DNA of 64,000 nt from Okeania sp. SIO1I7 (GTDB lineage Bacteria; Cyanobacteriota; Cyanobacteriia; Cyanobacteriales; Microcoleaceae), in the NCBI GenBank assembly GCA_010672585.1, contig JAAHGF010000004.1, positions 92,831 to 156,830 on the forward strand. The letters are read 5' to 3'. Under the pieces are notes generated by a model that searched no databases, was not told the DNA's origin, and was given only the letters and a program-made list of their open reading frames with translations. The first letter of the stretch is position 1. Each line of letters starts with the position of its first letter. The translations under genes and the position numbers were made by a program. Below, piece by piece: positions 19,337 to 56,320 of this stretch.

Positions 19337-22300
19337 ATGCGAGTCGAAGAATGCTGCCAGGCTTTATTAACTAAAATTTTAGTGAAAGTTGATCAAAAAA
19401 AAGAAGGAGTTTGTATTGATGTTGGTGTAGGAACTTTTGCCTTTTATTGTGAATTATTTGCTGATTTAGGGTTTCCAAGTGTTGCTGTTGAACCCTTACC
19501 AATTAACCCATTGATACAAAGGTGTCAAAAGTCTGATATTACCTTGGTAAAAAGCTGTTTATCAGAAGTTGATGGAGTTCAAAATTTATACGTTGGAAAT
19601 GTAGGTAGTCAGTCTAATAAAAACCCTACACATCTCAATTTTTCTTCCTTATCATCCAACTGGTGGGGAGCTTCTTCTACTAAAGTCAAAGAAGTTCCAT
19701 CAAAGACATTAAAACGTCTACTGGAAGAAATTAAAGCAAATCAAGTAACCTGTATCAAAATTGATATCGAAGGTTCAGAGTCAATTGTTATTTCTCAGTT
19801 TAAGCAGTTACCGAAAACTCTTTTACCGAAAGTAGTAATGTTTGAGTATGGTGGTGGTGCTGAACGAGGAAGTGGTACTAAAGGATGGGAACCTAAATTT
19901 TTAGCTGGTACTTTGGAGTGCCTAAATGTGCTTAAAGAATGTGGATATAGTTTGAGTATTGTAATAGATGGCCAAGAGAATACTGAAGAGTTTATTTTTG
20001 ATTTACAATCTAATGTAATTGACCCTGATAAAATATTCTATTCTAATGCTAAATGGGGCAATATTATTTGTTTTTTGAATTGCCAATACCCAGAATCAGA
20101 AATTAAGCAAGTTTGTCTTCCTTGGTATCAAGGTAATTTGAATCAATCTAAGAGTCAAGAAAAACCCAAAAAAACTCAAAATCAACTGCAATTGAATGGT
20201 GAGTTGAAGGTGATTGAACAACTGATTGAGTCTGGTCATTTAGTGTTTGATATTGGAGCTAATATTGGTGGGTGGACGAAAGAAGTATTAGAGAGAAAAC
20301 AAAATTTGGAAGTTCACTTATTTGAACCTATTCCTAATAATTATACAAGCCTAATCAAAACTCTTGCTCAAGAGATTGATACAAAAACAGTTATTCCCAA
20401 TAATTATGCTTTAGGTCAAGAAGATTGTTTAAAAACTTTTTATTTTTATCAAGACCGACCTCGATGGAGTACAGCTTACCGTAGATTTAAAGTAGAAAAC
20501 CAATATAAACTTCAAAATCCTCAAGAAATTCCAGTTTTAGTAACCACTTTGGATCGATATTGCAACACTTTAGGAATTCAACGAATTAATTTTTTGAAAC
20601 TTGATGTTGAAGGTGGTGAAATGGAAGTTATTCAGGGTGCTGAAGAGTTTCTTAAAAAGGGAAAAATTGATTATATTCAATTTGAATACGGAGGTACTTA
20701 TATCGATGCAAAGATTACTTTAGAAGAGGTTTTTGCTCTTTTAAAAAAATATCGTTACTCTATATTTAAAATTCATCCCTCCCAATTAGAACATATTCCC
20801 AATTTTAATTCAAAATATGAGAACTTTAAGTATAGTAATTTTTTGGCAGTTAATGAAAGACTTGTTTCTAAGGTTTTAGGAATCAAACCTAAGATGTTAG
20901 ATGTGCCCCAACTTTGTCAGGAATATGCTATTACTCCGCGAGGTATTATTCATGTGGGAGCGCATCAAGCAAAAGAGCTAGAACTATATCAAAAAATGAA
21001 CGCTACTCAAGTGTTATTGATTGAAGCTAATCCAAAAGTGTTTAATAGCTTGAAAGAAAAAGTTTCAGGGTTAGAGAATGTACAAGCTATTAACTGTGCA
21101 ATAAGTAATCAAGACGGTACAGCTAATTTACACATTACCTCATTAGACCAAGCCAGTTCTATTCTACCACTTAAAAAAGTAGAGAAAATTTATAAGAATA
21201 TCAAAGAAACTCATCAAATTACAGTACAGTCGAAAAAACTTGATACACTTTTAGAAGAAAAAAAGCTCAAACCGAATGATTTTAATATTCTCAATATTGA
21301 TATTCAGGGAGCAGAACTTTTAGCATTTCAAGGGGCTGAGAACCTACTAAAGTATATTGAAGCAATTAACACTGAAGTTAACTATGAAGAGCTTTACGAA
21401 GGATGTGCATTAATTGACCAACTTGATAAGTTTTTAGAGCAGTATGGATTCGAGCGTGTGGCAACTACATCACCCTATCACCCAACTTGGGGTGATGCTT
21501 TTTATGTGAAAAAACCTGTAGTCACCATGTCAACTTTGGGCGTAAAAGTTCGTTTTGCGAACAACTTGTTCCGATATGCTTTCTTAAAAATCTACTCAAA
21601 GGAGCATAATTTCAGAGTTGAAACTTCAAATTGGATTGGTCAATATTTATTTGGTCATAACGATCCACCTATTCTAAATAAATTACCTCAAGTGCGAGAG
21701 CAAGCCATGCCTTATAAGCTCTCAGAATCTAAAATCCTGAATTCTCAAAAGCCTTTAAAAAACGTCGATTTATTTGGATTTTTTCAATTTCACACCAGTT
21801 ATTATGCTGCTCACAAAGATTATTTTCGATCACTTTTCCAACCTATACCTGAAATTGAATTAAAGTTGAAAAAAGCTCTACAGAATTTGCGTTCCAAAGG
21901 CAAAACAATTGTTGGCTTACATTTACGACGGGGAGATTACAAGTTTGCACCTAGACCCTATCTTTCTGTTGCTCCCAATAGCTTGTACAGAGAATGGCTC
22001 AAAGGTTTTTGGGAAACACTAGATCGACCTGTATTATTCATTGCTAGTGATGAAATAAATAATGTCATACATGATTTCTCAGATTACAATCCCATCACAA
22101 TTCAAGATTTAAACATCGAATTACCTCAAGCGAATTACTATCCAGATTTCTACATTTTAAGTCAATGTGATGTACTAGCAATATCCAATAGTTCATTCTC
22201 ATTTGCTGCAGCCATGCTAAATGAGCGAGCAAAGTTATTCGTTCGTCCTCATTTACCTCAGAAAAAACTTATACCTTTCGATCCTTGGAATAGTGAACCC

Positions 22301-23782
22301 ATATTACGATGGAGTCAGGCTGAACTAGGGGATAAAGTTAACAATCATGTTGAAGGGGTAAAAGTTGAAATCTTAAACGTTCAATCCTCAACAGACTACT
22401 CTCATCAATTACTAGGACGGTGTTTAGACAAGCCAAAATCAGGCGTTCAAATCAACGCTAGTAAAATTGAGTTACTAGGCTGGGTATTGGGAAAAAAATC
22501 TCCCGCAGTTGCCGTGGAAGTCATACATGATGGAAAGTTAATTCACAATATATCTGTTAATCGCTCTAGACTTGATGTGGCTAGACATTATCCCCAATCA
22601 CCAGAAGCTAAGAATTGTGGTTTTGCAGGTAAATTGGATGTAACTCAGTTTCCGGCAGAGTCAGAAATTTGTACTCAAGTTATCTTCAAAGATCGGAGTC
22701 GTTGTCCGATAGCGACAATAAAATTGAAATGGCAAAATTTATCAAGTAGTAGCTTGACCACAGGAGAAAAATTTCAACAAGACTTGAAACAACAGCAAAT
22801 TCGACTTCAAAAGTTTAAAGCTCAACTAGATAACTTATCACCTCCTACACAAAAGCTGCACATACAAGAAACATCAGTAGAGGTTCAACCTGGGCAAGAA
22901 GATGTTCCCTGGTTTGTTATGTCAGCAGCTTTGGCGAGAGGAGAAAGTTATTTGTTGCCAACTCCCAAAGAAATAGAAGAATCTCTAATCGCTGGTATAT
23001 CTACTGTTAAGGACGAAGAAGATATCATTTACCATAGTCTCGCGTGGCAATATCAACAGGGAATCAAAAAATTTGTCATACTAGACCATCAATCTTCAGA
23101 CAATACAGTACAGGAAATTAAACGCTTTAGAAATGATCATCCAGGAGCAATACTCCACTTAATAGAAGACAAAGATCCTAGCTTTCACAAATATAGAAAA
23201 TTAACAGGAGCAGCAGAGCTAGCACACCGAATATGGGGAGTAAAATGGATATTTCCTTTTGATGCAGATGAGTTACTATGCTCAAGTAAGACTGGTTTAC
23301 CAACTCTTCTCAAAGATCTCGAAAAACAGCATAATTGCATCCGTTTAGATAATATAAATTATGTCCTCAGATCGTTTTATGATCATTCAGAGACGAACCC
23401 AATTAAAAGGATGACTCATCGAATGAAAAATACTTCAGGTCAAGGTTATAAAGTTTTAGTTCGTTGGAAACCTGGAATGGTTATTGGACAAGGTCAGCAC
23501 GATGTTTGCTTGAATGGGAAGAGTGTTTCTTACATACATGGTAAACCTCTCGGACTATTTATTAGACACTATCCCTTTCGTTCAAAAGAACATATTAGGA
23601 AAAAAATTATTAAGGGAGGGGAAGCTTATGCAGCAACTCAGGGTTTTCCAGAGCGAGTTGGTAAAGCTTGGAAAAAATGGTATGGTCAGTATCAACTTAT
23701 GGGAGAAGAGTATGTAGATGAGGTCTATAATTTCCACTTGAGTAAATATAAAGATGCAGTATATGATCCAGCTCTACTATAA
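19337..23782 (+). CDS. Six-domain enzyme: three FkbM methyltransferases, GT11-like, GW module and GT92-like glycosyltransferase
   Basis: Domains in order across 1481 aa: FkbM 1 (about 25-270, motif CIDVGVGTFAFY, acidic IKIDIEGSE); FkbM 2 (about 300-500, FDIGANIGGWTKE, LKLDVEGGEME); FkbM 3 (about 535-735, IIHVGAHQAKELELY, LNIDIQGAEL); a GT11 fucosyltransferase-like domain (about 735-1010, RFANNLFRYAF and the donor motif GLHLRRGDY near 861); a beta-rich GW module (about 1038-1145, ELLGWVLGKKSP); a short coiled coil; and a GT92-like domain (about 1210-1481, STVKDEEDIIYH, DHQSSDNT, FDADE near 1308). FkbM enzymes O-methylate sugars or hydroxyls. One chain could therefore extend and repeatedly methylate a glycan. 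It has no signal peptide or transmembrane segment. Its last domain is a paralogue of the end of the 42292-45012 protein. Confidence 0.88.
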   Translation: MRVEECCQALLTKILVKVDQKKEGVCIDVGVGTFAFYCELFADLGFPSVAVEPLPINPLIQRCQKSDITLVKSCLSEVDGVQNLYVGNVGSQSNKNPTHLNFSSLSSNWWGASSTKVKEVPSKTLKRLLEEIKANQVTCIKIDIEGSESIVISQFKQLPKTLLPKVVMFEYGGGAERGSGTKGWEPKFLAGTLECLNVLKECGYSLSIVIDGQENTEEFIFDLQSNVIDPDKIFYSNAKWGNIICFLNCQYPESEIKQVCLPWYQGNLNQSKSQEKPKKTQNQLQLNGELKVIEQLIESGHLVFDIGANIGGWTKEVLERKQNLEVHLFEPIPNNYTSLIKTLAQEIDTKTVIPNNYALGQEDCLKTFYFYQDRPRWSTAYRRFKVENQYKLQNPQEIPVLVTTLDRYCNTLGIQRINFLKLDVEGGEMEVIQGAEEFLKKGKIDYIQFEYGGTYIDAKITLEEVFALLKKYRYSIFKIHPSQLEHIPNFNSKYENFKYSNFLAVNERLVSKVLGIKPKMLDVPQLCQEYAITPRGIIHVGAHQAKELELYQKMNATQVLLIEANPKVFNSLKEKVSGLENVQAINCAISNQDGTANLHITSLDQASSILPLKKVEKIYKNIKETHQITVQSKKLDTLLEEKKLKPNDFNILNIDIQGAELLAFQGAENLLKYIEAINTEVNYEELYEGCALIDQLDKFLEQYGFERVATTSPYHPTWGDAFYVKKPVVTMSTLGVKVRFANNLFRYAFLKIYSKEHNFRVETSNWIGQYLFGHNDPPILNKLPQVREQAMPYKLSESKILNSQKPLKNVDLFGFFQFHTSYYAAHKDYFRSLFQPIPEIELKLKKALQNLRSKGKTIVGLHLRRGDYKFAPRPYLSVAPNSLYREWLKGFWETLDRPVLFIASDEINNVIHDFSDYNPITIQDLNIELPQANYYPDFYILSQCDVLAISNSSFSFAAAMLNERAKLFVRPHLPQKKLIPFDPWNSEPILRWSQAELGDKVNNHVEGVKVEILNVQSSTDYSHQLLGRCLDKPKSGVQINASKIELLGWVLGKKSPAVAVEVIHDGKLIHNISVNRSRLDVARHYPQSPEAKNCGFAGKLDVTQFPAESEICTQVIFKDRSRCPIATIKLKWQNLSSSSLTTGEKFQQDLKQQQIRLQKFKAQLDNLSPPTQKLHIQETSVEVQPGQEDVPWFVMSAALARGESYLLPTPKEIEESLIAGISTVKDEEDIIYHSLAWQYQQGIKKFVILDHQSSDNTVQEIKRFRNDHPGAILHLIEDKDPSFHKYRKLTGAAELAHRIWGVKWIFPFDADELLCSSKTGLPTLLKDLEKQHNCIRLDNINYVLRSFYDHSETNPIKRMTHRMKNTSGQGYKVLVRWKPGMVIGQGQHDVCLNGKSVSYIHGKPLGLFIRHYPFRSKEHIRKKIIKGGEAYAATQGFPERVGKAWKKWYGQYQLMGEEYVDEVYNFHLSKYKDAVYDPALL

Positions 23783-24439: not shown

Positions 24440-24444
24440 ATTAA

Positions 24445-25119: not shown

Positions 25120-25157
25120 AAATTTTTTCTTTAATTCTTGATTAAAGTCTTTTTTAA

Positions 25158-25298: not shown

Positions 25299-25406
25299 TT
25301 ACTCAGAATTTATAGGGATTTTCTTTATTCATTATTTTCTTAGGAAAACTTTTATTAATAGAACTACATCTAGATTTAATTTGACTTAAAAGCGATCGCC
25401 TAACTC

Positions 25407-27716
25407 TTACTTTCTTCCTCCTGACTTCTTCAATTCAAAAGTAGTATCCATTACCCTAAATCTGAGACTTTCAACTGGCTTACCTTTACTATCATAGCGG
25501 AAAGCATGATGTCCATTTCCTTTACCTGCTTTTTTTAAATCTCCTCGAAATTGGCCAGCAACTATTCTATCAATAATCTTGCCATTTTCCAGAACTTCAA
25601 CTGTTAATTGCATGAAAGGAAAATCTAGACACCATACCCAACCAGGGATAAAATTACTATTTTCAGAATCAACAAATCCTTCAAAAGATAATTCTCCTAT
25701 ATTTTCTCCTCCTGGTATCAATGCCATTGCTTTTCTAGCAATTATTATTGGCTTTATATTACTATCAATTTTTTCAGTCAGCAGATTTTTTTTGTCTTGA
25801 TTAAAATTAAATAATTTTCCTGATTTAACGTCTTTAATAATCACACTATCTTCTGTTTTAAATCCTGAACTATTAGCGAATAAAGCTTTTTGAGGAATCT
25901 GGATATTGTGAACTTTAAAGAAGATTGTCATTAGACCAAAAGCACTAATCATTTGTGGCATATTAAATCCCACGGTTTTTATTGTATTTAGTGTTTTTTG
26001 TCGGTCTATTAATTCCCATAAAGGAGATTCTGTATAGTCAGCTAAAATTTCAAAGATGGCTGCTCTAAATTTAGGATTTTTATTAATAGTGTGTTGCCAA
26101 CTTCCATGTTGTGGTAAATTTTTAGGAGCAGGAATTGGGTCTTTAAATATTGAGTTTGAAGCTCCATAAGAGGTTAAACCTCTGTGCCAAGTTTGTTGAG
26201 CAAATGGTATCTCTAATAAACTTGGTTCTAGGCGACGTAACATCGCAAAATGTATTAATTCTTGTTGTCTTTGAGGAGCATTAAGAGCGAAAGCTAATCT
26301 AATTAAACCTGTAGAATTAATTGGCATTACTACTTGATTACTATCAGCGTCTTTTCTCCTAGCTGTTCCTAACCAATTAGGAATACGTTCTTTTATATAG
26401 TATAGGTCTGGAATATCATTAAATTCTGAGCCTAATCCTAAATAATTTTCCATTCTGTTGAGAACTTTTGTGGAAATTTTTCTCCGAATATCCTCTTTTA
26501 ATATTCCTAAAGGATCGAAAGGACCATGAGCGGAAATCATCTGTTCGGGATTAGGCATTGTTGGATAATTAAAAGGCTTTTTCAGGTAGCCTTTAAATAC
26601 TTCTCCAATAAAACCAGCTAATACTAAACCTTTTACACATTGTTTTCCTTGCTTGAGGTCCCACGCACCAAACATTCCATCATTTTGAAATACATGAGTT
26701 GCTAATCTTTTGAGTAATTCTTGTGTTGCTAAAGTGGGGTCTCTAAATCTACCTGGTTTCTTTGTAGTGTGAGGAAGTTTTAAATGATTAGCTAATTTTT
26801 TGGCTACAATTACATCTGGATGTTCTTCAATTCCATTGGTAAATAAACGTAGTTTATCTCTTAAACCTGCTTGTAAGGCTAAGGCTAAAATTAATCTACT
26901 ATCTTTTCCTCCAGTGAGTGCTAGTGGAATATTATCTGCACTACTAAATATAGCTTTAATATTAGCCAAACATTCATTAATACCTTGCTCGACAATACTG
27001 TTAAAAACTTCAGGATTTTTCACCTCGCTTTTACTAGGAGCATTTTGATAAATCCAATCTTTATTTTCATTAACTTTTAGGTCTCCATTTTGCAGTTTAA
27101 TTACTGCTCCTTGTGCGAGTCGAGAAATTCCTTTTATGTATGTGTCTTCTCCCAGCATATACCCGACTACTGGCAAGGCAAGCATAGCTTCTAAATTATA
27201 TTCATACTGGTCATCAATGTGAGGTAATAATGCTATGCGGTTGGTTATTGAGGAGATATTCTTATTTTTTGAATAGTAAATATGTTCGATACTTAATCTG
27301 TCGTTAAAGGCAATTACATTACCATCATCTGAAGCGTGGATAATTGCATATTCTCCTGCCAACAAATCTCTAACTTTCTCAGTATCAAAGTTATTTTTTG
27401 ATAGGAGTAAGTAAATATCAAAAGCTGTTAATATTTTGCCTGTACTACCTATTCCTGTGGATGACCAACAATAACCTTGAATTATGGTGACTGAGATAAT
27501 TTTACTCTCTGATTGATTAATATATATTTGGTCTTTTGTTGAGTAGAAATAATTATCTGTAGCAAAATGAAATAAGGCAATTTTTTGATTAGCTAAAAAG
27601 TAGGAATTATCGGACTGAGACTGGATATGAATTGTCTGTTTGCCCGATTTAATTAATTTTTCCTGCTGATTTTTGTCAAAGGGTGTCAAAGATGACCTGA
27701 CCAAAAATATTCCCAT
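25407..27716 (-). CDS. Asparagine-synthase-like PP-loop enzyme lacking the glutaminase cysteine, with C-terminal GW module
   Basis: In this 769-aa protein residues 1-210 follow the outline of the N-terminal glutamine amidotransferase domain of asparagine synthases (LLAGEYAIIHAS, NDRLSIEHIYYS). The essential second-residue cysteine is absent, since the start is MGIFLV. The ATP-pyrophosphatase domain is clear: PLALTGGKDSRLILALA (about 265-280) and later GMFGAWDLK. The last roughly 85 residues are a separate module (FVDSENSNFIPGWVWCLDFP, then FRGDLKKAGKGNGHHAF) also found in the 32228-38131 TPR-glycosyltransferase. It likely activates a carboxylate by adenylation and uses ammonia or another amine, as in polysaccharide-locus amidotransferases (inference). 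The locus also carries heparinase and sulfotransferase genes, a typical EPS context. Confidence 0.85.
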   Translation of the reverse strand: MGIFLVRSSLTPFDKNQQEKLIKSGKQTIHIQSQSDNSYFLANQKIALFHFATDNYFYSTKDQIYINQSESKIISVTIIQGYCWSSTGIGSTGKILTAFDIYLLLSKNNFDTEKVRDLLAGEYAIIHASDDGNVIAFNDRLSIEHIYYSKNKNISSITNRIALLPHIDDQYEYNLEAMLALPVVGYMLGEDTYIKGISRLAQGAVIKLQNGDLKVNENKDWIYQNAPSKSEVKNPEVFNSIVEQGINECLANIKAIFSSADNIPLALTGGKDSRLILALALQAGLRDKLRLFTNGIEEHPDVIVAKKLANHLKLPHTTKKPGRFRDPTLATQELLKRLATHVFQNDGMFGAWDLKQGKQCVKGLVLAGFIGEVFKGYLKKPFNYPTMPNPEQMISAHGPFDPLGILKEDIRRKISTKVLNRMENYLGLGSEFNDIPDLYYIKERIPNWLGTARRKDADSNQVVMPINSTGLIRLAFALNAPQRQQELIHFAMLRRLEPSLLEIPFAQQTWHRGLTSYGASNSIFKDPIPAPKNLPQHGSWQHTINKNPKFRAAIFEILADYTESPLWELIDRQKTLNTIKTVGFNMPQMISAFGLMTIFFKVHNIQIPQKALFANSSGFKTEDSVIIKDVKSGKLFNFNQDKKNLLTEKIDSNIKPIIIARKAMALIPGGENIGELSFEGFVDSENSNFIPGWVWCLDFPFMQLTVEVLENGKIIDRIVAGQFRGDLKKAGKGNGHHAFRYDSKGKPVESLRFRVMDTTFELKKSGGRK

Positions 27717-29793: not shown

Positions 29794-29848
29794 TCGGCAA
29801 GGGGTCTCCCGTTATAATCGAGCCATTTAACGGGAGGGGAATTGCCGA
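29794..29848. other. Left-end hairpin of the IS605-type element
   Basis: Outer stem TCGGCAA (29794) with TTGCCGA (29842), inner stem CTCCCGTTA (29806) with TAACGGGAG (29828), separated by small G-rich internal loops. Such subterminal palindromes are recognised by TnpA in single-strand transposition (family knowledge). Confidence 0.8.
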
Positions 29849-29856
29849 GCTGCAAA

Positions 29857-32227: not shown

Positions 32228-38131
<5,904 letters not shown>

Positions 38132-45012: not shown

Positions 45013-45092
45013 ACTAGGGGTTAGGGGTTTACGAAGTCAGAAGTCAGAAGTCAGAAGTCAGATAGAGTAGGGGGTAGGGGGTAGGGGAGCCT

Positions 45093-46237: not shown

Positions 46238-48241
46238 ATGAATCAGGTAAGAAAAAAAGCCACTTTAAGTTTATGTGCAATTATGAAAAATGAAGGACCT
46301 TATTTGAGAGAATGGTTAGAATTTCATAAGTTAGTTGGTGTTGAAAGATTTTATTTATACAACAACAATAGTACCGATCGTACTCTTGATATTGTTCGTC
46401 CATATAGAGAAAATCACGAAGTAGTTCTGACAAATTGGCCTGTGCAAAATGGTCAACAAATGAAGGCATATAATCATTTCCTACAAAAGTATAAAAATGA
46501 ATCAAAATGGATAGCATTTATAGATTTAGATGAGTTTTTATTCCCCACAGAAAAAAATGATTTAAGAGAAATATTAGAAGAATTCCCAGATGTTCCTGCT
46601 ATTGGAGTTAATTGGTTGATTTTTGGCACATCAGGATATGAGAAAAAACCGAAAGGATTACAAATAGAAAATTTTACTAAACGAGCTAAAGAGGATTTTA
46701 AGGCTAATCTCAATTTTAAATGTATTGTTCGCAGTGAGTTTACTATTGAATGTATGACTCCTCATCATTTTGTCTATGTTAATGATGGAGTAGCAGTTAG
46801 CGAAAATCATGAAAAATTATCGGCAAAAGTTTCTCCTCAACATTCTGTGAAAAAATTGAGAATTAATCATTATTTTACTCGCTCTATGGAAGAAAGTTTA
46901 AATAAAATTAAGAGGGGGAGAGCAACTGTAAATCACAAAAGAAAAATAGGAGAACTTAAATATCATGATCGTAATGAAGTAGAAGATTTAACTATTCAAA
47001 GATATATTCCTAAACTCAAAAAGTCACTAGCCGTATTTGAGAGGGAGAAAGATGGGGTAACTACCTTAGAAGAATCAAATTCATTACTAACTATTGGGAA
47101 TTTAGGTAAAGTAGTACTTGAGAATCAAATTCTACAATTAACAGGTTGGATAGTTTCTCTAATTCTAATTCCTGTTAGTGGTTTTAAAGTTTGGATTGGA
47201 GGTGAAGAGTATAAAGACTTTAAACAAACTCTAGGAATAAAAAGCCCGAGAATAAAAAAAGCCCGCCCTAGATTAAAAGGGGCAGAAAAGGCGAGATTTT
47301 GTCTAGAAATACCTCTCAATAAAATTCATAGAGAAAGCTATCAAGACCTCCTAATTATTTTAATCCCAATGTTGGGAAATTTCGAGGGGTCTGTTTTGAT
47401 CGATGTCTTTAATCCTTCTAGGAAGGTTCCTTCTGAAGAATATATTAGTCAGATTGATAGAAATAGTTCTGTTGATTTTCAGTCTAATGCTTTTAAATGG
47501 TTAGGATATTTAATTCAAAGAATAGGTCTCAAACCAACAGATAGTATTCTTGATATTGGCTGTGGAATAGGTGAAGTTGCTTATGGCTTGACTTATTACT
47601 TAACACCTAAAGCACGTTATGAAGGCATTGAATTTTCAGAAAAAGCAATTGATTGGGCACAGCAAGAAATTACTCCTAGAAAATCTAACTTTAATTTTCA
47701 ATACCAGGATATTTTTCATCCTATTTATAACTCAAAGGGGACTCTACCTATGAAAAATTTTATATTTCCCTATCCAGAAGCAAGTTTTGATGCGGTCTGT
47801 ATTAGTAATTTTTTTACTCATTTATCTAGTATCGATATACGTCATTATCTCCAGCAAATTAAGCGAGTTTTAAAAGTAGGAGGAAAGTGTTTATTTGCCT
47901 GCTTTTTAATTAATTTTGAATCTCAAAATTTAATTGCTGACGGCAAGAGTTCTCAGCATTTAATCTATGAAATAGAAGGTGGTTTCTGTTTAGATTCAGA
48001 ACTTCCAGAAAAGACAATAAGCTTTCAAGAATCCCTAATAATTGATTGGATCAAAGAAAGTGGTTTAACTGTTGTAGGCAAATATTATGGTTCGTGGTGT
48101 GGGCGTAAATCTTTTACTCATCAAGATTTGCTAATTCTGCAAAAAAAAACTGAAGTTCAATCAAAATTTAATAACTACCAAACAGTCTTGAAACAATACA
48201 AGCTTAGATTACAAAAAATTCAGGGAGAATTATGGCAGTAG
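46238..48241 (+). CDS. GT92/Glyco_transf_2_4-like glycosyltransferase-GW module-methyltransferase fusion
   Basis: Residues 8 to about 250 of 667 form the glycosyltransferase: LCAIMKNEGPYLREWLEFHK, YLYNNNSTDRTLDIV, and the metal-binding FIDLDEFLFP (about 93-102), with a late basic NHYFTRSMEESLNKIKRGRA. A GW module follows (about 285-395, LQLTGWIVSLILIPVSGFKV, ARFCLEIPL). The C-terminal class I methyltransferase (about 412-628) has SILDIGCGIGEVAYGLTYYL, IEFSEKAIDWAQ and IKRVLKVGGKCLFACFLINF, ending with YYGSWCGR. That domain is paralogous to the ends of the 48416 and 50825 proteins. A GAGGAGAG site lies about 9 nt upstream of the ATG. Likely it adds and methylates a sugar residue. Confidence 0.88.
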   Translation: MNQVRKKATLSLCAIMKNEGPYLREWLEFHKLVGVERFYLYNNNSTDRTLDIVRPYRENHEVVLTNWPVQNGQQMKAYNHFLQKYKNESKWIAFIDLDEFLFPTEKNDLREILEEFPDVPAIGVNWLIFGTSGYEKKPKGLQIENFTKRAKEDFKANLNFKCIVRSEFTIECMTPHHFVYVNDGVAVSENHEKLSAKVSPQHSVKKLRINHYFTRSMEESLNKIKRGRATVNHKRKIGELKYHDRNEVEDLTIQRYIPKLKKSLAVFEREKDGVTTLEESNSLLTIGNLGKVVLENQILQLTGWIVSLILIPVSGFKVWIGGEEYKDFKQTLGIKSPRIKKARPRLKGAEKARFCLEIPLNKIHRESYQDLLIILIPMLGNFEGSVLIDVFNPSRKVPSEEYISQIDRNSSVDFQSNAFKWLGYLIQRIGLKPTDSILDIGCGIGEVAYGLTYYLTPKARYEGIEFSEKAIDWAQQEITPRKSNFNFQYQDIFHPIYNSKGTLPMKNFIFPYPEASFDAVCISNFFTHLSSIDIRHYLQQIKRVLKVGGKCLFACFLINFESQNLIADGKSSQHLIYEIEGGFCLDSELPEKTISFQESLIIDWIKESGLTVVGKYYGSWCGRKSFTHQDLLILQKKTEVQSKFNNYQTVLKQYKLRLQKIQGELWQ

Positions 48242-48415: not shown

Positions 48416-50266
48416 ATGAGTAAAATCAATCAATTAGAAGGAGTAAAAACAAAAATTGTTTCGATTCATGTACCAAAAACTGCTGGTACAACATTTAAAC
48501 AAGTTTTGAGGCAAATATATCATCTAGAAGAAATTTTCTTTGACTATCCGCACAGGGGTGATTTTCGTCATAATATGTTAACTAATCCTAAACCGGAAGT
48601 TAAAGTAATTCATGGTCATTTCCCTAGTAATAAATATGATTATAAATTTCCAGAATTTAGAAAAATAATTTGGCTCCGAGACCCAATCAAGAGATTAATC
48701 TCTTTTTACTTTTTTTGGAAGACTTGGCAAATTTTATTAGAAAGTGATGAACAAAATTTATCATCGGTCAAAGAGTCTAATTTGACATTTATAGAATTCG
48801 CCGAAAAACCAGAGATGCAGAATGTAATTAAATCAAAATTTGTTCAAGAGCAAAAATTAACAGAATTTGACTTTGTCGGGATTCAAGAATTTTTTCCTGA
48901 AGATTTACATGAACTAAAATTTATACTAAACTGGCCAGAGTATAAACTTGAAACCCAGAATACCAACCCTTATCCAGAATACAAGTCATTATTAGAAGAA
49001 GTATTATCTAATCAAGAAATAGTGGATAAAATATCAAGTATAAATCAGGAAGATATAGAACTTTATCAAGAAGCACTAAGTTTGCGGGAGACGCGGAGAA
49101 AAACGTCAAAAATACAATACTATACTCAAGAAAATCTCAAAAATTTATTATCTGGAAAACAAGAAATTAGCCAGCAAATAATAAAAACTAATCCTTTACT
49201 TACTTGGGGTTCTATTGACAGGGCAGTCATTAAAAATCAAGTTTTGCGCTTATCTGGGTGGGTCGCTTCCCTTGATGCTGGTATGGTGGAAGGATTTAAA
49301 GTTTTGATTGGTAATCAAGTGTTTAGTTTTTTTGAACAGAATCTCAATATACCCAGTCCAGATGTAGAAAAAATTCATCCTAGTTTAGATAGTGCAAGTA
49401 ATGCCAGATTCCGGCTCAAAATACTTTTAAATCAACAACAAATTAACCAATTAAAGCATTCATTAATTGCTTTAACTCCTCAATTTCAATGTGGTGAGGG
49501 GATAATTTTATTAAAGGTATTAGCACCACTTTTGCCACTGCCGGAAGAGAAAGATATAAAAATAATTGATGTTGATGGCAGCGGTCAATTTATTCGTACT
49601 TCGTTCAAATTACTAGGAGATTTAATTCAGAGATTAGGTTTACAACCTACAGACCATATTCTGGATGTTGGTTGTAATATTGGTACTGTTCCTTATTCCT
49701 TAGTTCATTATTTACAACCTTCTGGTCGTTACGAAGGTTTTGATATGGTAAAAAATTTGATTTCCTCGTTACAAAAGGAAATTACAACACACAAACCTAA
49801 CTTTAACTTTAACTGGCATAACATTCATCACCCTCTGTATAATCCCACTGGCACAATATCAGCAATTAATTTTACTTTTCCTTATCCTGATGAAAGTTTT
49901 AACTGTGTCTGTATTTCTCATTTATTAACTCATTTACAAAGTCTGGAAATTATCCACTATCTTGATGAAATATATCGAGTTTTGAAACCTGGAGGGAGGT
50001 GCTTATTAATTTGCTTTTTAATCAACTCGGAATCAGAACAGTTAATAGCTAAAGGCAAAAGTTATCAACAGCTTATTTATGAAACAGAATATGGTTTTAC
50101 TAAAGATATTAATTTGCCAGAAAGAGGGATTGGTTTTAGGGAAAGTTTACTATTAGAGTGGATAAATGAACGAGGGTTTAATGTTCTAGAAAAATCTTAT
50201 GGTTCTTGGTGTGGTCGGACTTCATCTTTTAAAGAAGATTTGTTAGTTTTGGAAAAAAATATTTGA
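48416..50266 (+). CDS. Sulfotransferase-GW module-methyltransferase fusion
   Basis: The N-terminal sulfotransferase of the Sulfotransfer_2 type (10 to about 225 of 616) has VSIHVPKTAGTTFKQVLRQI (PAPS loop, about 15-34), VIHGHFPSNKY (about 64-74) and IIWLRDPIKRLISFYFF (about 83-99). The GW module (about 262-375) reads LRLSGWVASLDAGMVEGFKV, then PSPDVEKIHPSLDSASNARF. The methyltransferase (about 392-602) has HILDVGCNIGTVPYSLVHYL, IYRVLKPGGRCLLICFLINS and YGSWCGRTSSF. The motif I glycine pattern is DxGCNxG, intact enough for SAM binding. It is tandem with 46238-48241 and 50825-56320 on the same strand, with repeat-bearing spacers. Confidence 0.9.
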   Translation: MSKINQLEGVKTKIVSIHVPKTAGTTFKQVLRQIYHLEEIFFDYPHRGDFRHNMLTNPKPEVKVIHGHFPSNKYDYKFPEFRKIIWLRDPIKRLISFYFFWKTWQILLESDEQNLSSVKESNLTFIEFAEKPEMQNVIKSKFVQEQKLTEFDFVGIQEFFPEDLHELKFILNWPEYKLETQNTNPYPEYKSLLEEVLSNQEIVDKISSINQEDIELYQEALSLRETRRKTSKIQYYTQENLKNLLSGKQEISQQIIKTNPLLTWGSIDRAVIKNQVLRLSGWVASLDAGMVEGFKVLIGNQVFSFFEQNLNIPSPDVEKIHPSLDSASNARFRLKILLNQQQINQLKHSLIALTPQFQCGEGIILLKVLAPLLPLPEEKDIKIIDVDGSGQFIRTSFKLLGDLIQRLGLQPTDHILDVGCNIGTVPYSLVHYLQPSGRYEGFDMVKNLISSLQKEITTHKPNFNFNWHNIHHPLYNPTGTISAINFTFPYPDESFNCVCISHLLTHLQSLEIIHYLDEIYRVLKPGGRCLLICFLINSESEQLIAKGKSYQQLIYETEYGFTKDINLPERGIGFRESLLLEWINERGFNVLEKSYGSWCGRTSSFKEDLLVLEKNI

Positions 50267-50824: not shown

Positions 50825-53800
50825 ATGGAAAAAGTTGAAATAGTACAGAAACAACCTACACAACTAGCAGCAACTACAGGATTTTTAGACCAAGTAGCAA
50901 TAGAAAATGAAACTGTTTGTTTAAGCGGATGGGTTCTCTCTTTTGAGCCTGAGTCTGTAACTAATTTTAAAGTTTTATTTGGCAGTCAACAATTAGTAGG
51001 ATTTGAATTAACTCAAGGTCTTCCTAGCCCTGGGGTGAAAAAAGCACATCCAAATATTTCTGCTGCTAATAACGCTCGGTTTATTATTAGACTACCAATG
51101 AATAAACAGCAGCAAAAACAATTTAAAGATGCTCTGATTATTTTAATTCCTCTAGTTGCTGACCGTGAAGGAGAACCTTTATTAAATGCTGTTAATCCTG
51201 CATTATCTGCTTTAGTTAAAACACCAGAAGCAAGTAATTTACCAAGCCAAACTCCTCCAGTAGAACTTATTTCTGTTCATGTGCCAAAAGCAGCCGGAAC
51301 AGCTTTCAGACAAGTTTTATTACAAGTTTATGGAACTCAGGGAGTTCTGACAGATAAAACTAATATGTTTGAAGATAATATGCCAGCTACTATTCATTGG
51401 CAGACTAAAGTTATTGAGGGTCATTTTCGCGCTGGTAAATACGATAAATTATTTCCTGATACTAAGAGAATTACATGGTTAAGAGAACCTATCCACAGGT
51501 TAATTTCTGATTACTGTTTTCGCCATATATCTAATCCCACAAAAGATTATCTAAATAAACAAGGTTTACTGAAGTTTGCTCAAAGTAACAGTAATCTTAT
51601 GGCTTATTGTGTGAATGGTAAATCTCTGGATTATTTTGATTTTGTCGGAATTACAGAATATTTTGAAGAGGATTTACTGGCACTCAAAAATCTTCTTGGT
51701 TGGTCAGATTATCAAGTTATTTATCAAAATAGAAATCCTTATCCAGAATATCTTGACTTTCAGAAAGAGGTTTTATCAGACAAAAAATTAATGGATGAAT
51801 TGGCAAGTGCTAATAGTCAAGATATGGAACTTTATGCAGCAGCTTTAAAATTACGAGCTGAAGGAAGAAGGAAGAAGGAAGAAGGAAGAAGGAATGAAGT
51901 TAGAAGTGAACAAAAAGAAGGAATAAGTGACATTAATTTACCAGCAGAAAATATAGTTAATAATCAAGGAAGAAGGGAGAAGGAGGAAGGCAAAAGCCAG
52001 AATTCAGAAGTTAGAAGCGAACAAGAAGTTAGAAGTGATATTAATTTGTCAGTACAAAATATAGTTAAGAAGGAGGAAGGAAAAAGTGCAATTAATTTAC
52101 CTGAAAAAAATGTAGTTGATTTGGAACCATATACAGTGCCAGAAAAAACAAAAATATTAGCAACATTGGGTTCTTTGGATAAGGTAGAATTTGACCGTCA
52201 AGAATTATTACTAATAGGTTGGGTAGTTTCTCGTAATTTAGGAGCAGTAAAAAGCTTTCAATTAACTATTGCAGGTACTGAAATAGAAAATTTTGAAACT
52301 GCCTTAAATTTACCAAGTCCTGATGTGAGAAAATTACATCCGAATCTTCATAATTCTGACAAAGTAAGGTTTCGTATCAAGGCATTTCTTAACCCAGAAC
52401 AAATTTCACAATTCCAAAATGCTGAAATTGTTTTAACTCCCATATTTAAAGATGGTAAAGGTCAGGTTTTATCTAAAGTAAAGGAAGGAAGAGGGAAGAA
52501 GCGGTGCGACCCCGCGTCGGCGAAAGACGCAAGCGGTCGGACCCCGCGTCGCCGACAGGCGCAAGGGAACGCCGACCAAGAGAGGGAATGCGCACCAAGA
52601 GAGGAAGAAGGAAGAAGTAATGAAGTCAGAAGTGAACAGGAAGTTAGAAGTGAGGAAGAAGGCAAAAGTGGAATTGATTTACCAGAAAAAAATGTAGTTG
52701 ATTTGGAGCCATATACAGTGCCAGAAAAAACAAAACCATTAACTTTTTCTGAAGCATCCATAGGTCAAGAACAACCAAAATTCATCCCACCAATTGAACC
52801 AATTACAACAATAGGTCATCTAGATCGAGTAGCAAAAGCCAATCAAAAATTAATTATATCTGGATGGGTAGGTTCTTACAATTTTGGTTCTGTAGAAAGC
52901 TTTAAAGTTTTCATCGGCAGTCAAGAATTTACTTCTTTTGAACAAAAATTAGGTCTACCTAGCCCAGATGTAGCAAAAGTTAGGACTCAGCTTAATAATG
53001 CTGAAAATGCTAGATTTAGTCTGGAAATACCCTTGACAAAGGCAGAACTTCAAAACTGCCAAAATACTCTCATTACTCTGACTCCAATATTTCAAGGAAA
53101 AGAGGGAGAAATTCTGTTTCAACTATTTAATCCATCCCTGCCAATTCCTGAAGATAAATATATAGAAGGAAAAGCAATTAACTTTATCCAAAGAAGCTGC
53201 AAATTTTTAGGCGACTTTATCCAAAGAGTAGGTCTTCAACCCACTGCTGAAGTTTTGGAAATTGGCTGCGGAGTCGGTAATATTGCTTATGGTCTAGCCT
53301 ATTATTTAAAATCTCCAGGTCGTTATGAAGGGAATGACTTTTCTGAGGAATTAATATCTTGGGCAAAGCAAAATATTAGCAGCCACAAACCACATTTCAA
53401 TTTCCGTCAGATAGACTCAGATTTGAAACTTCCCTACGACGACAAAAGTTTTGATTTTGTCTTTATCGGTTCCAGATTTACTCAGGTCAGTGGAAAGGAA
53501 ATTCGTAATTATTTAGATGAAATTTATCGAGTTTTAAAACCAGATGGTCGTTTCTTATTCCAATGTTTTTTAGTTAACCACGAGTCAGAACAATTAATAT
53601 CTGAAGGCAAGAGTTCTCAACCTCTTGTTCATAAAGTTCAGGAAGGTTTTACTAAAGACCTAAATTCACCAGAAAAAGGGATGGGTTTTCTGGAGTCTTT
53701 ATTGTTGGAGTGGGCAATTAATGCTGGTTTTAATGTATTAGGAAAATATTATGGTTCTTGGTGTGGACGAGTTGGTAAGAGAAGTTATCCAGATATGGTA

Positions 53801-56320
53801 ATTCTGGAGAAGGAAGAAGTCAGAGTAAATAAGGAAAAAATTGATAGTTTGCTTAAAGAAGAAGCAGAAAATAAGCAGTCAGAAATTTTACAAGACTTGG
53901 AAAAAATAGATAGCGATCGCTCTTCCGAAGAAGTCAGAGTAAATAAGGAAAAAATTGATAGTTTGGTTAGAGAAGAAGCAGAAAGTAAGCAGTCAGAAAA
54001 TTTACAAGACTTGGAAAAAATAGATAGCGATCGCTCTGAGGTTTTGCAGAATAATTTACCATCAGAATCTACTTTAAAAATTACTCCTGAATCTAAGTCT
54101 TCTGCCTCTCCTTTACTGGTGGAAATAATGGCAGATTTGGAGAAATCGCAAATAGAAATCCAAGAAATTCAAGCGGATCTAGAAAAGTTCAAATCTCAAA
54201 AGGAAGATATTCCTGCCAAGAGTCTATTTCCTGTAGAACCAGATATTTCAACTACAGCTAAAAAAAAACTTCTGACTAAACCTTTAGAAGAAGTTACTCA
54301 AAAGTCAAAACTTCCTACCCTTCCGCCCAAAAAAAAACAGGAATTATTGGGTTTATCCGGAGTAACAGTTGAAAATTTTTGGGAAATTATTTTAGTAGAA
54401 GGAAGGAGGAAGAAGGAAGAAGGAAGAGGGGATTTTTCTGATATAGAAGGAAGAAGGAAGAAGGAAGAAGGAAGAAGGGATTTTTCTGATATAGAAGGAA
54501 GGAGTAAGAAGGAAGAAGGAAGAAGGGATTTTTCTGATATAGAAGGAAGAAGGAAGAAGGAAGAAGGAAGAAGGGATTTTTCTGATATAGAAGGAAGGAG
54601 TAAGAAGGAAGAAGGAAGAAGGGATTTTTCTGAATCTTTGATAGAAGGAAGAAGGAAGAAGGAAGAAGGAAGAAGGGATTTTTCTGATATAGAAGGAAGG
54701 AGTAAGAAGGAAGAAGGAAGAAGGGATTTTTCTGAATCTTTGATAGAAGGAAGAAGAGATGACTCTAAACCTTCTATTAGTATTCTTACTCCAACCTGGA
54801 ATTCATCTTTAGATTGGTTTGTGGAAACTGTTTTAAGTGTTCTTAACCAATCTATCCCTAACTGGGAATGGTGTATTGTTGATGATGGCTCGAAACAACC
54901 AGAAATTAGAAATGTACTTGCAGGTTTAGCAGAAAAAGAACCGAGAATTAAAGTTCTACTTTCAGAAGATAATGGCGGAATTAGTGCTGCTACAAATAAA
55001 GCTCTAAATATGGCTACAGGAGAATATATTTGTTTATTAGACCATGATGATACTTTGGCTCCCACAGCATTAGAAGATAGTCTGAATAAACTGGCAGAAG
55101 GATTCGATGTAGTTTATTCCGATGAAGATAAAATTGATTTTTCTGGATTAAATTATATCGTTCCATTCTTTAAACCTGACTGGTCTCCTGAATATTTTCG
55201 TGGTGTTATGTATGTTGGTCATTTATTATGTGTCCGTCGAGAAATAGCTTTAGCTGCGGGTGGTTTTAAGAGTGAATTTGATGGAGTACAAGACTATGAG
55301 TTTATATTACGAGTTTCCGAACAAACTAATAAAATTGCTCATATTTCTCGACACCTTTATCATTGGCGACAAGTTAAAGGAAGTATTTCCGGAGATGCCG
55401 ATGCTAAAGCAGGTATTGAAGTAGTACAACAAGCTGCTGTTAACTCTCATTTACAAAGGATTGGTTTGGCAGCAAAAGCAGAACCAGGTTTAGGTAAACA
55501 TCGGATAAATATTAATCCTTTATCTAGAAATAATCATCCTTTGATTAGTCTAATTATTGCTGCTCCTAATATTTCAGAAAATCTCGATCAATGGTCGAAA
55601 AATCTTTTGTCTGTTTCAACTTATCCGAAAAATGAAGTGATTTTAGTTGGTGGAGAAAAAACAGAAAATATTATCCAAAATTCTGAGGTAAAAGTTTTAA
55701 GTCTATCAGGGCAATTTAATTATTCTCGTGCTTATAATCTAGCTGCCAAAACTGCCCAAGGAGAATATTTTATTTTCCTCAATACTAATTTAGAAGTTGT
55801 TACTGAAGATTGGCAACGACATCTTTTATATTACGCCGAACAATCTGATATTGGTGTAGTGGGAGGACTATTAATTTTCCCAGATGGAATTGTTGAACAC
55901 GCAGGCATTATATTAGGAAAATCTGGAAAAGTTGATTATGTAATGCGAGGTTTTCCCTCTAACCATGATGGTTATGCAGGTTCTTTAGTTTGCGCAAGAG
56001 AAGTATCTGCTGTAAGTCGAGATTGTTTGATGGTGAGTAGGCAAAATTTTGAAATGGTTGGAGGTTTTAATGAACATTTTTTCTCTGATTATCAAGATGT
56101 TGATTTGTGTTTGAAGTTGAGGAAAAATGGCAAGCGAATAGTATTTACCCCTCGTAGTGTTTTAATTAATCATCAATCAGAAAAACACAGACAAAGAAAT
56201 TATGATGTGGTTGACTATATGTTGCTATTAGACCAACAGCAAATTTATATGGATTTGGGCGACCCATATTACAATCTAAATTTTGATATTCAACGTAACG
56301 ATTACACTGTCGTTTTGTAG
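50825..56320 (+). CDS. Giant modular enzyme: sulfotransferase, three GW modules, methyltransferase and two GT2 domains
   Basis: Order in 1831 aa: GW module 1 (about 17-130); sulfotransferase (about 143-340, VHVPKAAGTAFRQVLLQVYG, ITWLREPIHRLISDY); repeat-derived linker; GW module 2 (about 443-553); linker with a GC-rich insert; GW module 3 (about 660-775); class I methyltransferase (about 783-995, VLEIGCGVGNIAYGLAYYL, YYGSWCGR); a helical region with a 38-aa direct duplication (about 998-1073); seven 16-18-aa repeats of EGRRKKEEGRRDFSDI type (about 1192-1312); GT2 domain 1 (about 1315-1500, ILTPTWNSSLDWF, CIVDDGS, LLDHDDT); GT2 domain 2 (about 1571-1831, FIFLNTNLEVV, DYQDVDLCLKLRKNG), whose DxD position reads NTN. 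It probably couples glycan extension, methylation and sulfation. There is no signal peptide. Confidence 0.9.
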   Translation: MEKVEIVQKQPTQLAATTGFLDQVAIENETVCLSGWVLSFEPESVTNFKVLFGSQQLVGFELTQGLPSPGVKKAHPNISAANNARFIIRLPMNKQQQKQFKDALIILIPLVADREGEPLLNAVNPALSALVKTPEASNLPSQTPPVELISVHVPKAAGTAFRQVLLQVYGTQGVLTDKTNMFEDNMPATIHWQTKVIEGHFRAGKYDKLFPDTKRITWLREPIHRLISDYCFRHISNPTKDYLNKQGLLKFAQSNSNLMAYCVNGKSLDYFDFVGITEYFEEDLLALKNLLGWSDYQVIYQNRNPYPEYLDFQKEVLSDKKLMDELASANSQDMELYAAALKLRAEGRRKKEEGRRNEVRSEQKEGISDINLPAENIVNNQGRREKEEGKSQNSEVRSEQEVRSDINLSVQNIVKKEEGKSAINLPEKNVVDLEPYTVPEKTKILATLGSLDKVEFDRQELLLIGWVVSRNLGAVKSFQLTIAGTEIENFETALNLPSPDVRKLHPNLHNSDKVRFRIKAFLNPEQISQFQNAEIVLTPIFKDGKGQVLSKVKEGRGKKRCDPASAKDASGRTPRRRQAQGNADQERECAPREEEGRSNEVRSEQEVRSEEEGKSGIDLPEKNVVDLEPYTVPEKTKPLTFSEASIGQEQPKFIPPIEPITTIGHLDRVAKANQKLIISGWVGSYNFGSVESFKVFIGSQEFTSFEQKLGLPSPDVAKVRTQLNNAENARFSLEIPLTKAELQNCQNTLITLTPIFQGKEGEILFQLFNPSLPIPEDKYIEGKAINFIQRSCKFLGDFIQRVGLQPTAEVLEIGCGVGNIAYGLAYYLKSPGRYEGNDFSEELISWAKQNISSHKPHFNFRQIDSDLKLPYDDKSFDFVFIGSRFTQVSGKEIRNYLDEIYRVLKPDGRFLFQCFLVNHESEQLISEGKSSQPLVHKVQEGFTKDLNSPEKGMGFLESLLLEWAINAGFNVLGKYYGSWCGRVGKRSYPDMVILEKEEVRVNKEKIDSLLKEEAENKQSEILQDLEKIDSDRSSEEVRVNKEKIDSLVREEAESKQSENLQDLEKIDSDRSEVLQNNLPSESTLKITPESKSSASPLLVEIMADLEKSQIEIQEIQADLEKFKSQKEDIPAKSLFPVEPDISTTAKKKLLTKPLEEVTQKSKLPTLPPKKKQELLGLSGVTVENFWEIILVEGRRKKEEGRGDFSDIEGRRKKEEGRRDFSDIEGRSKKEEGRRDFSDIEGRRKKEEGRRDFSDIEGRSKKEEGRRDFSESLIEGRRKKEEGRRDFSDIEGRSKKEEGRRDFSESLIEGRRDDSKPSISILTPTWNSSLDWFVETVLSVLNQSIPNWEWCIVDDGSKQPEIRNVLAGLAEKEPRIKVLLSEDNGGISAATNKALNMATGEYICLLDHDDTLAPTALEDSLNKLAEGFDVVYSDEDKIDFSGLNYIVPFFKPDWSPEYFRGVMYVGHLLCVRREIALAAGGFKSEFDGVQDYEFILRVSEQTNKIAHISRHLYHWRQVKGSISGDADAKAGIEVVQQAAVNSHLQRIGLAAKAEPGLGKHRININPLSRNNHPLISLIIAAPNISENLDQWSKNLLSVSTYPKNEVILVGGEKTENIIQNSEVKVLSLSGQFNYSRAYNLAAKTAQGEYFIFLNTNLEVVTEDWQRHLLYYAEQSDIGVVGGLLIFPDGIVEHAGIILGKSGKVDYVMRGFPSNHDGYAGSLVCAREVSAVSRDCLMVSRQNFEMVGGFNEHFFSDYQDVDLCLKLRKNGKRIVFTPRSVLINHQSEKHRQRNYDVVDYMLLLDQQQIYMDLGDPYYNLNFDIQRNDYTVVL
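52493..52612. repeat. GC-rich repeat insert inside the coding sequence
   Basis: A roughly 110-bp block (GCGGTGCGACCCCGCGTCGG and on) with base composition unlike the surrounding AT-rich gene is read in frame as KKRCDPASAKDASGRTPRRR and so on, between two GRKK/EEGR heptamer stretches. The same GCGGTGCGACCCCGCG core is intergenic at about 3611 and inverted at about 46025. Confidence 0.85.
53816..54043 (+). repeat. In-frame 114-bp direct duplication
   Basis: Two adjacent copies (53816-53929, 53930-54043) encode VRVNKEKIDSLLKEEAENKQ and VRVNKEKIDSLVREEAESKQ. Each ends with a HIP1-containing IDSDRS segment. Confidence 0.9.
54400..54755 (+). repeat. In-frame minisatellite of about 48 bp, seven units
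   Basis: Each unit joins a GGAAGAA heptamer tract to GGGATTTTTCTGATATA or GGGATTTTTCTGAATCTTTG. Translated, the units are IEGRRKKEEGRRDFSD with R/S alternation and two longer FSESL variants. All unit lengths are multiples of three. The antisense frame is also open (54298-55065), an artefact. Confidence 0.95.

What the first reader, a model, noticed from the sequence alone, without database searches (positions are those of the whole stretch)
19337..56320. A Gly-Trp-centred accessory module repeated nine times in seven proteins
Seen: about 90-110 residues with a GW(V/A/I) core, a following strand like V-(V/F)-(V/I)-(G/D)G, a central R/S-xD(V/L)--(H/A)-P or RxDLxxA element and a final F-(L/I/A)-(I/L/F)P strand. 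Copies lie at about 22450-22770, 25410-25660 (minus), 35820-36150 (minus), 43320-43620, 47090-47420, 49200-49540, 50875-51215, 52150-52480 and 52800-53140. They sit beside sulfotransferase, methyltransferase, glycosyltransferase and PP-loop domains, so they are probably a shared acceptor- or partner-binding domain, like a carrier-docking or carbohydrate-binding module. The three sequence subgroups may be one fold.
Basis: partly seen in the sequence, partly recalled or inferred. Interest (0 to 1): 0.8.

Follow-up and report, generated by a model that had tools for sequence, protein, structure and literature searches.

The report
Unnamed Ig-like module in sugar-modifying enzymes
Nine copies of a small, so far unnamed protein module sit beside enzymes that look like builders and decorators of surface sugars; relatives occur in many bacteria, and the module may hold the sugar chain or the enzyme complex, though no binding has been shown.

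Summary
All nine segments exist within 75 bases of the stated places; profile searches find these nine and no tenth. None reaches a Pfam or NCBIfam cut-off. Profile comparison joins the subgroups as a chain: E (E1, F1, G1-G3) to A (A1, D1), and A to C (B1, C1); E to C directly is weak or absent. Models of one E and one C copy are confident (mean pLDDT 92.6, 95.0) with the same order of main elements, distantly like Ig/FN3 beta-sandwiches. A was not modelled.

The family is wide: the window's phylum, many alphaproteobacteria and several other phyla. Partners are glycosyl-, sulfo-, methyl- and acetyltransferases and some carbohydrate esterases. In 18 of 18 relatives with stand-alone E genes the module precedes a methyltransferase; in 6 of these the gene lies about 3 kb from Wzt_C, part of a polysaccharide exporter. 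In the window's genome and one relative, two A modules each lie just after wzt.

Best reading: a non-catalytic domain that holds the polysaccharide acceptor (CBM-like). Binding is inferred, not shown. New variant of a known kind.

The parts
22397..22735 (+). Module A1 (subgroup A) in the 1481-aa ORF 19337-23782, between GT11-like and GT2_4 domains
   Evidence: A5 profile iE 1.6e-39, own copy in the profile
25410..25733 (-). Module B1 (subgroup C), C-terminal end of the 769-aa PP-loop (Asn_synthase-like) ORF 25407-27716
   Evidence: A8 profile iE 2.1e-23, own copy in the profile
35852..36184 (-). Module C1 (subgroup C) between TPR array and GT2 domain of the 1967-aa ORF 32228-38131
   Evidence: A8 profile iE 9.5e-29, own copy in the profile; AF2 mean pLDDT 95.0
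43294..43638 (+). Module D1 (subgroup A) between sulfotransferase and methyltransferase of the 906-aa ORF 42292-45012
   Evidence: A5 profile iE 4.5e-36, own copy in the profile
47066..47416 (+). Module E1 (subgroup E) between GT92/GT2 and methyltransferase of the 667-aa ORF 46238-48241
   Evidence: A4 profile iE 2.6e-40, own copy in the profile
49184..49528 (+). Module F1 (subgroup E) between Sulfotransfer_2 and methyltransferase of the 616-aa ORF 48416-50266
   Evidence: A4 profile iE 8.7e-46, own copy in the profile
50846..51199 (+). Module G1 (subgroup E), N-terminal to Sulfotransfer_2 in the 1831-aa ORF 50825-56320
   Evidence: A4 profile iE 6.5e-45, own copy in the profile
52136..52486 (+). 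Module G2 (subgroup E), after the sulfotransferase of the 1831-aa ORF
   Evidence: A4 profile iE 1e-41, own copy in the profile
52781..53134 (+). Module G3 (subgroup E), directly before the methyltransferase of the 1831-aa ORF
   Evidence: A4 profile iE 1.3e-44, own copy in the profile; AF2 mean pLDDT 92.6
48449..49069 (+). Sulfotransfer_2 domain of protein F, neighbour of module F1
   Evidence: residues 12-218, E 1.1e-11
49658..49996 (+). Class I methyltransferase domain of protein F, neighbour of module F1
   Evidence: residues 415-527 (Methyltransf_25, E 4.5e-11)
53252..53548 (+). Class I methyltransferase domain of protein G, neighbour of module G3
   Evidence: residues 810-908 (Methyltransf_25, E 7.3e-18)
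54779..55135 (+). GT2 domain at the C-terminal side of protein G
   Evidence: residues 1319-1437 (best of two stretches, E 1.3e-35 for the protein)

Best explanation
The nine segments are copies of one domain family that has no Pfam or NCBIfam model in the copies searched (called here the GW module): about 100-118 residues, predicted as an Ig/FN3-like beta-sandwich (seven strands in the C1 model, nine strand segments in the G3 model) with a short helix after the fourth main strand. It is a non-catalytic accessory domain of enzymes that build and decorate cell-surface polysaccharide. Most likely it works as a carbohydrate-binding module: it holds the polysaccharide acceptor so that the neighbouring sulfo-, methyl- or glycosyltransferase acts on it, for assembly inside the cell of a glycan that a Wzm/Wzt ABC transporter exports. 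Shown by computation: presence, family unity with A as link, fold class, neighbouring enzymes, and the wzm-wzt location in some relatives and on another contig of the same genome. Inferred: the glycan ligand, the acceptor-holding role, and that the enzymes of this window serve that same pathway.
For: Nine copies, shuffles empty. hhalign probability E-A 97.5%, A-C 96.6% and 96.5%; scores 61.5 and 48.7 against 100 column shuffles each with maxima 11.7 and 11.3. AF2 mean pLDDT 92.6 and 95.0; in both, GW lies in the second strand, the xD element in the helix and F in the strand after it. Foldseek's best hits are Ig, FN3 and PKD proteins. Of 87 module ORFs scanned, neighbours at E <= 1e-5 include Glyco_trans_1_4 in 24, Glycos_transf_2 in 12, SASA esterase in 4, GNAT in 3, Sulfotransfer_3 in 2. 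In 18 of 18 relatives with stand-alone E genes the module is followed by a methyltransferase; in 6 of these 18 Wzt_C lies 2.8-3.0 kb away. L228 order: module-MT, Wzm, Wzt, sulfotransferase, GT2, with orthologues in L231. Two tandem A modules lie in a protein two genes after wzt on C30 of the same genome and in L246. Precedent: an isolated Ig-like domain of C. youngae ORF12 bound LPS (PMC11127046, section 10 read).
Against: No glycan binding was tested and no known CBM family matches (one CBM_4_9 hit at E 0.086 in 67 modules). Profile comparison with five Wzt_C sequences gives no signal. Only GW is invariant in all three alignments, which looks structural; no universal binding residue is seen. 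In 12 of 18 genomes the module-MT gene is not near Wzt_C, and the window's genome has one Wzt_C, on contig C30, not in the window. The loci L228 and L231 are syntenic beyond the operon too, so they are one conserved locus, not independent events. No matched control stands behind the neighbour tallies. 11 of 87 module ORFs carry Hint_2, and 8 of 18 hosts whose ends I printed finish in a hydrophobic stretch, which glycan binding does not obviously explain. In C. youngae ORF12, an extracytoplasmic enzyme, the CBM was not needed for activity.
Confidence: 0.5

Rival explanations
1. The module is a protein-protein assembly domain: it docks the tailoring enzymes onto each other or onto a membrane platform, making a synthesis complex. 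Glycan contact is incidental.
For: Many hosts are multi-enzyme chains, some with repeated modules. Of 18 hosts whose ends I printed, 8 are short frames (262-313 codons, stop to stop) with a module and a hydrophobic C-terminal stretch, which look tail-anchored by eye. E modules sit directly before one methyltransferase type in 18 of 18 relatives with stand-alone genes.
Against: Also found in L158, a SASA esterase with a signal-like N-terminus by eye, where a cytoplasmic partner is unlikely. The subgroups probably differ too much in sequence to bind one common partner surface (inference).
Confidence: 0.25
2. The module is a structural spacer (FN3-like) that only sets distance between enzymes or between enzyme and membrane, with no ligand.
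For: Ig/FN3-like fold, strict conservation only of GW across groups, several copies in one protein.
Against: A spacer would not explain the recurring glycan enzymes (no matched control) nor R51 and A47 within subgroup C: 63 of 63 rows of A8, at least 90% of the 67 rows of A7; both lie outside the search pattern.
Confidence: 0.17
3. The segments are ends of the neighbouring catalytic domains, or unrelated domains that share only a GW motif.
For: E and C are not joined in the controlled run (score 2.7, reversed 2.6, best of 100 shuffles 9.3). E modules precede the same methyltransferase type in 18 of 18 relatives with stand-alone genes.
Against: Isolated segments of E and C fold with mean pLDDT above 92; G1 and G2 have no methyltransferase directly after them; A links to both E and C well above shuffles; direct E-C comparison with the tool's own alignments gave 46.7% and 61.2%.
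Confidence: 0.05

Closest known systems
Ig-like CBMs of O-polysaccharide enzymes: K. pneumoniae ORF6-O7 terminator (PMC11231755, abstract and passages seen) and C. youngae ORF12 (PMC11127046, passages and section 10 read)
   Same: Ig-like domain fused to glycan-assembly enzymes; for O7 a methyltransferase protein in a wzm-wzt cluster
   Different: Those sequences were not on hand, so homology was not tested. ORF12 acts outside the cytoplasm. No kinase was seen in the module-MT protein of L228. [quoted passage not shown]
Wzt C-terminal CBM (PF14524)
   Same: Accessory domain of the same export pathway; found in some of the same loci
   Different: Not attached to an ABC ATPase in the hosts seen; profile comparison gives no signal (five Wzt_C sequences only)
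Bacterial Ig domains (Big_7 PF17957, He_PIG PF05345)
   Same: Ig-like fold class; 2 of 67 group C modules touch Big_7 weakly (best E 0.033); He_PIG lies between two modules in L158
   Different: No match at threshold; profile comparison with 8 Big_7 segments gives no signal
WbdD chain terminator of E. coli O9a (PMC3482155, abstract read)
   Same: A methyltransferase of the ABC-exporter pathway, as module-MT is beside wzt in 6 of 18 genomes
   Different: WbdD has a kinase and a coiled coil; Pfam shows only methyltransferase families in the one module-MT protein scanned; termination not tested

Membership tests
Carbohydrate-binding module (any CAZy CBM) | Non-catalytic domain in carbohydrate-active enzymes | tested here: met
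   no catalytic family on the module; hosts include glycosyl-, sulfo-, methyltransferases and SASA esterases
Carbohydrate-binding module (any CAZy CBM) | Sequence match to a named CBM family | tested here: not met
   one CBM_4_9 hit at E 0.086, no other CBM listed
Carbohydrate-binding module (any CAZy CBM) | Measured carbohydrate binding | not testable with these tools
   needs purified module
Ig-like / FN3-like fold | Beta-sandwich matching Ig or FN3 structures | tested here: met
   Ig, FN3, PKD proteins lead; TMq 0.40-0.51 for G3 and 0.31-0.54 for C1 in the 50 rows shown each; one hit at E <= 0.001 for G3, none for C1: a distant match only
Wzt_C (PF14524) | Profile match | tested here: not met
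   one of 27 A-type modules at E 0.17
Big_7 (PF17957) | Score over the curated cut-off | tested here: not met
   not listed; 2 of 67 at best E 0.033; profile comparison
WbdD-like chain terminator (for module-MT proteins) | Methyltransferase next to wzm-wzt | tested here: inconclusive
   6 of 18 genomes, two genera, one conserved locus
WbdD-like chain terminator (for module-MT proteins) | Kinase domain in the protein | tested here: not met
   L228 module-MT only: methyltransferase families alone at E <= 1e-5
WbdD-like chain terminator (for module-MT proteins) | Coiled-coil ruler in the protein | not tested
   no coiled-coil predictor was run
WbdD-like chain terminator (for module-MT proteins) | Stops chain growth | not testable with these tools
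   needs mutant and glycan analysis

The most novel reading that the evidence does not exclude
The GW module is an unnamed, widespread acceptor-holding domain that different enzymes of one surface-polysaccharide pathway share, so that methylation, sulfation and glycosylation of a growing chain are all directed by the same kind of glycan grip before Wzm/Wzt export; module-methyltransferase would be a chain-capping enzyme with a built-in CBM.
Probability: 0.25. Interest if true: 0.72.

Novelty: new variant of a known kind. Interest (0 to 1): 0.52.

Why it matters
More than a hundred proteins seen here carry this domain, yet neither Pfam nor NCBIfam, in the copies searched, has a model for it, so these enzymes are half annotated. 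If it grips the acceptor, it would help to explain how large multi-enzyme chains decorate one polysaccharide, and its profile would mark surface-glycan genes in cyanobacteria-like genomes and alphaproteobacteria.

Tried and rejected
Known families: Pfam, NCBIfam and PDB sequence searches with single copies and with profiles gave only weak hits. P22_AR_N (0.0094 for D1, 16.6 bits against a cut-off of 30.7), fluorinase (0.0012, 2 of 67), intimin (0.0046, 2 of 67) and a mitoribosomal protein (0.0043, PDB) were judged chance, each being weak, partial or in one or two members. Big_7 and Wzt_C were tested by profile comparison without signal (comparators of only 8 and 5 sequences, so weak negatives). 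No phage record matches one C-type query. For the methyltransferase part of G, none of the 44 PDB rows at E <= 0.01 is named WbdD. Paper searches, of which I saw listings, do not show this domain described; (S. meliloti locus tags recalled from memory) gave nothing useful. Direct E-C homology failed in the controlled run. Neighbours of module-MT against random regions was planned: control regions were fetched but never scanned, so no enrichment test was made; of 110 neighbour ORFs 42 were scanned. The 87 ORFs were taken shortest first from 97 loci until a residue limit, are stop-to-stop frames often cut by locus ends, come in part from close relatives, and only 25 of 39 families were shown. 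Conservation of the DL--AG-GDG-H-F residues in A8 is biased, because its rows from other phyla were fetched with a pattern that demands them; GW, A47 and R51 are outside the pattern. A8 also leaves out three of the ten rows of A6 (L072, L073, L075) and the four rows; in A7, with those four, A47 and R51 are nearly invariant, not invariant. One search prints '119 of 80' by a wrong denominator; the loci are 119 (L081-L199), and its final profile was built on these loci, so one search was run with the older profile.

Full report
1. Observation. The window lies in a 9.5 Mb genome (G000:C44:92831-156830). No tool names the organism; I take it as a cyanobacterium, because phycobilisome genes lie near module genes in relatives of its order. 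Seven ORFs carry the nine segments. Catalytic domains by Pfam: A, FkbM methyltransferase, GT11 and GT2_4; B, an Asn_synthase-like PP-loop domain (20.6 bits, just under its cut-off of 21); C, TPR array, GT2 and Glyco_trans_1_2; D, sulfotransferase, Methyltransf_24, GT2_4; E, GT92 and methyltransferase; F, Sulfotransfer_2 and methyltransferase; G, Sulfotransfer_2, methyltransferase, GT2. The best stretches of these families lie outside the modules. Profiles find nine modules and no tenth, and shuffled ORFs give none (the profiles contain the window's copies). The same genome holds at least three more, all of type A: one on C77, after TPR and GT2 domains, and two in tandem on C30.

2. One family in three subgroups. 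Single-sequence scores separate E (five copies), A (two) and C (two). After adding relatives, E and A join (hhalign 97.5%) and A and C join (96.6%; 96.5%). Against 100 column shuffles each, the real scores are 61.5 versus a maximum of 11.7, and 48.7 versus 11.3. E and C directly: 46.7% and 61.2% with the tool's alignments, but in the controlled run a score of 2.7, against 2.6 for the reversed profile and up to 9.3 in shuffles. Family unity therefore rests on A as the link.

3. Fold. AlphaFold2 models of G3 (28 rows) and C1 (63 rows) have mean pLDDT 92.6 and 95.0, pTM 0.84 and 0.85. G3 has nine strand segments and two helices, C1 seven strands and one helix; the main elements come in the same order: strand 1, strand 2 with GW, two further main strands, a short helix at the xD[VL] element, a strand with F, then the last strands. 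Foldseek ranks MHC class I heavy chains and other Ig-domain proteins for G3 (best E 5.1e-4; one hit at E <= 0.001; TMq 0.40-0.51 in the 50 rows shown; which domain aligned is not stated) and FN3, PKD and other beta-sandwich proteins for C1 (best E 0.013; TMq 0.31-0.54). This is a distant fold match, not membership. The two models were not superposed, and no A model was made.

4. Distribution. The E seed matches 22 of 195 genomes of the order, own included; two of these (G027, G179) score better with the A profile, which leaves 20. The genus has E modules in 5 of 5 genomes, own included. A: 11 of 292 of the phylum; C: 7 of 292, own included in both (the C hit in G362 has stops inside; seeds of two sequences only, so these are low estimates). 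The profile of ten sequences from the window's phylum, none pattern-selected, finds a module in 118 of these 119 loci at iE 1e-3 or better (116 at 1e-5), and none in 8,896 reversed ORFs. The 80 titles listed are mostly genera that I know as alphaproteobacteria, plus Larkinella, Aquificaceae, Thermodesulfobacterium, Planctomycetota, Acidobacteria, Solirubrobacterales, Cobetia and Desulfovibrionales. Plasmid records add Sinorhizobium, Azospirillum, Paracoccus and Methylomagnum among others. Of 67 C modules the best family E-values are 0.0097 (Pfam) and 0.0012 (NCBIfam), each family in one or two members.

5. Neighbouring domains. Among 87 module ORFs (of 97 loci with an ORF of 250-1100 residues, shortest taken first), Pfam at E <= 1e-5 gives Glyco_trans_1_4 in 24, Glycos_transf_2 in 12, Hint_2 in 11, He_PIG in 5, SASA in 4, GNAT in 3, Sulfotransfer_3 in 2, and PhyH, AIDA, RicinB lectin and Methyltransf_11 in 1 each; 25 of 39 families were shown. 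Ten ORFs scanned singly include GT chains, one with five modules (L193), a methyltransferase (L143), PA14 (L171) and L158, a SASA esterase with He_PIG between two modules. L158 starts with a signal-like stretch and ends in what I recall as a type IX sorting domain (by eye). Of the 18 hosts whose ends I printed, 8 finish in a hydrophobic stretch (by eye). No matched control was run for these tallies.

6. Gene neighbourhood. In all 18 genomes outside the genus with stand-alone E genes, the module is followed within 20 residues by a class I methyltransferase. The other matches are G153, which has the sulfotransferase fusions of the window, and G027 and G179 with A modules. Wzt_C was found in 24 of 24 genomes asked. 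It lies 2.8-3.0 kb from the module in 6 of the 18: G113, G079, G130 (one genus) and G104, G121, G150 (another). In 10 it is on other contigs, in 2 (G126, G190) hundreds of kb or more away. L228 shows module-MT, Wzm, Wzt, sulfotransferase, GT2; L231 has orthologues at 50-70% identity in the same order, with one extra ORF after wzt. Genes beyond are syntenic too, so this is one conserved locus. On contig C30 of the window's genome, Wzm and Wzt are followed by a methyltransferase protein and then a 2565-residue Sulfotransfer_3/GT2/GT1 protein with two tandem A modules. In G153 the order looks the same: Wzt_C and two A modules, the other genes by length and N-terminus only. The window's genome has no other Wzt_C, so none in the window.

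7. Mechanism. In the ABC-transporter pathway the polysaccharide is finished inside the cell before export (PMC4390846, passages), and a CBM on the exporter's ATPase reads the terminal residue (PMC11231755, passages). K. [quoted passage not shown] In C. youngae an isolated Ig-like domain bound LPS but was not essential; that enzyme works outside the cytoplasm (PMC11127046, passages and section 10). By analogy the GW module most likely grips the acceptor chain. Steps shown: fold class, neighbouring enzymes, location. Steps inferred: ligand, grip, capping or tailoring order.

8. Verdict.

Noticed in passing
window 54396-54735, 51859-52068, 52597-52661 (protein G) and 33773-34222, 35590-35778 (protein C); also 45033-45062 between genes: Tandem repeats of 7-base units (AGAAGGA, ACTTCTG and kin) lie inside coding linkers between modules and enzymes, and also between genes. 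They recall short heptamer repeats of cyanobacteria (recalled). In G153 the matching sulfotransferase-to-module linker is only a few residues (L041).
   Followed up: partly
window 28662-29855 and 31392-32036 (both -), with 30183-31349 (+) between them: A heparinase II/III-like C-terminal part and a second minus-strand ORF without a Pfam hit lie on either side of an ORF that by eye looks like a transposase gene; perhaps one gene split by an insertion. The middle ORF was not scanned.
   Followed up: no
window 57139-58068 (+): IS605 OrfB-type transposase just beyond the module cluster.
   Followed up: no
window 14410-17157 and 17936-19222 (+): A Sulfotransfer_3 protein and a Methyltransf_24 protein, each with long coiled-coil-like repeats by eye, stand upstream of the module genes. 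Coiled coils act as chain-length rulers in known terminators (PMC11231755 abstract).
   Followed up: no
NZ_CP058177.1 19604-19813: A C-type module match (38.9% identity, 64% of query, E 3e-4) on a 60-kb Enterobacter hormaechei plasmid from a freshwater sample.
   Followed up: no
L077 (Sinorhizobium medicae CP140910.1 981414-993623): A module protein sits in a run of GT2, methyltransferase and GT4 genes next to a type I secretion adaptor and a calcium-binding protein gene.
   Followed up: no
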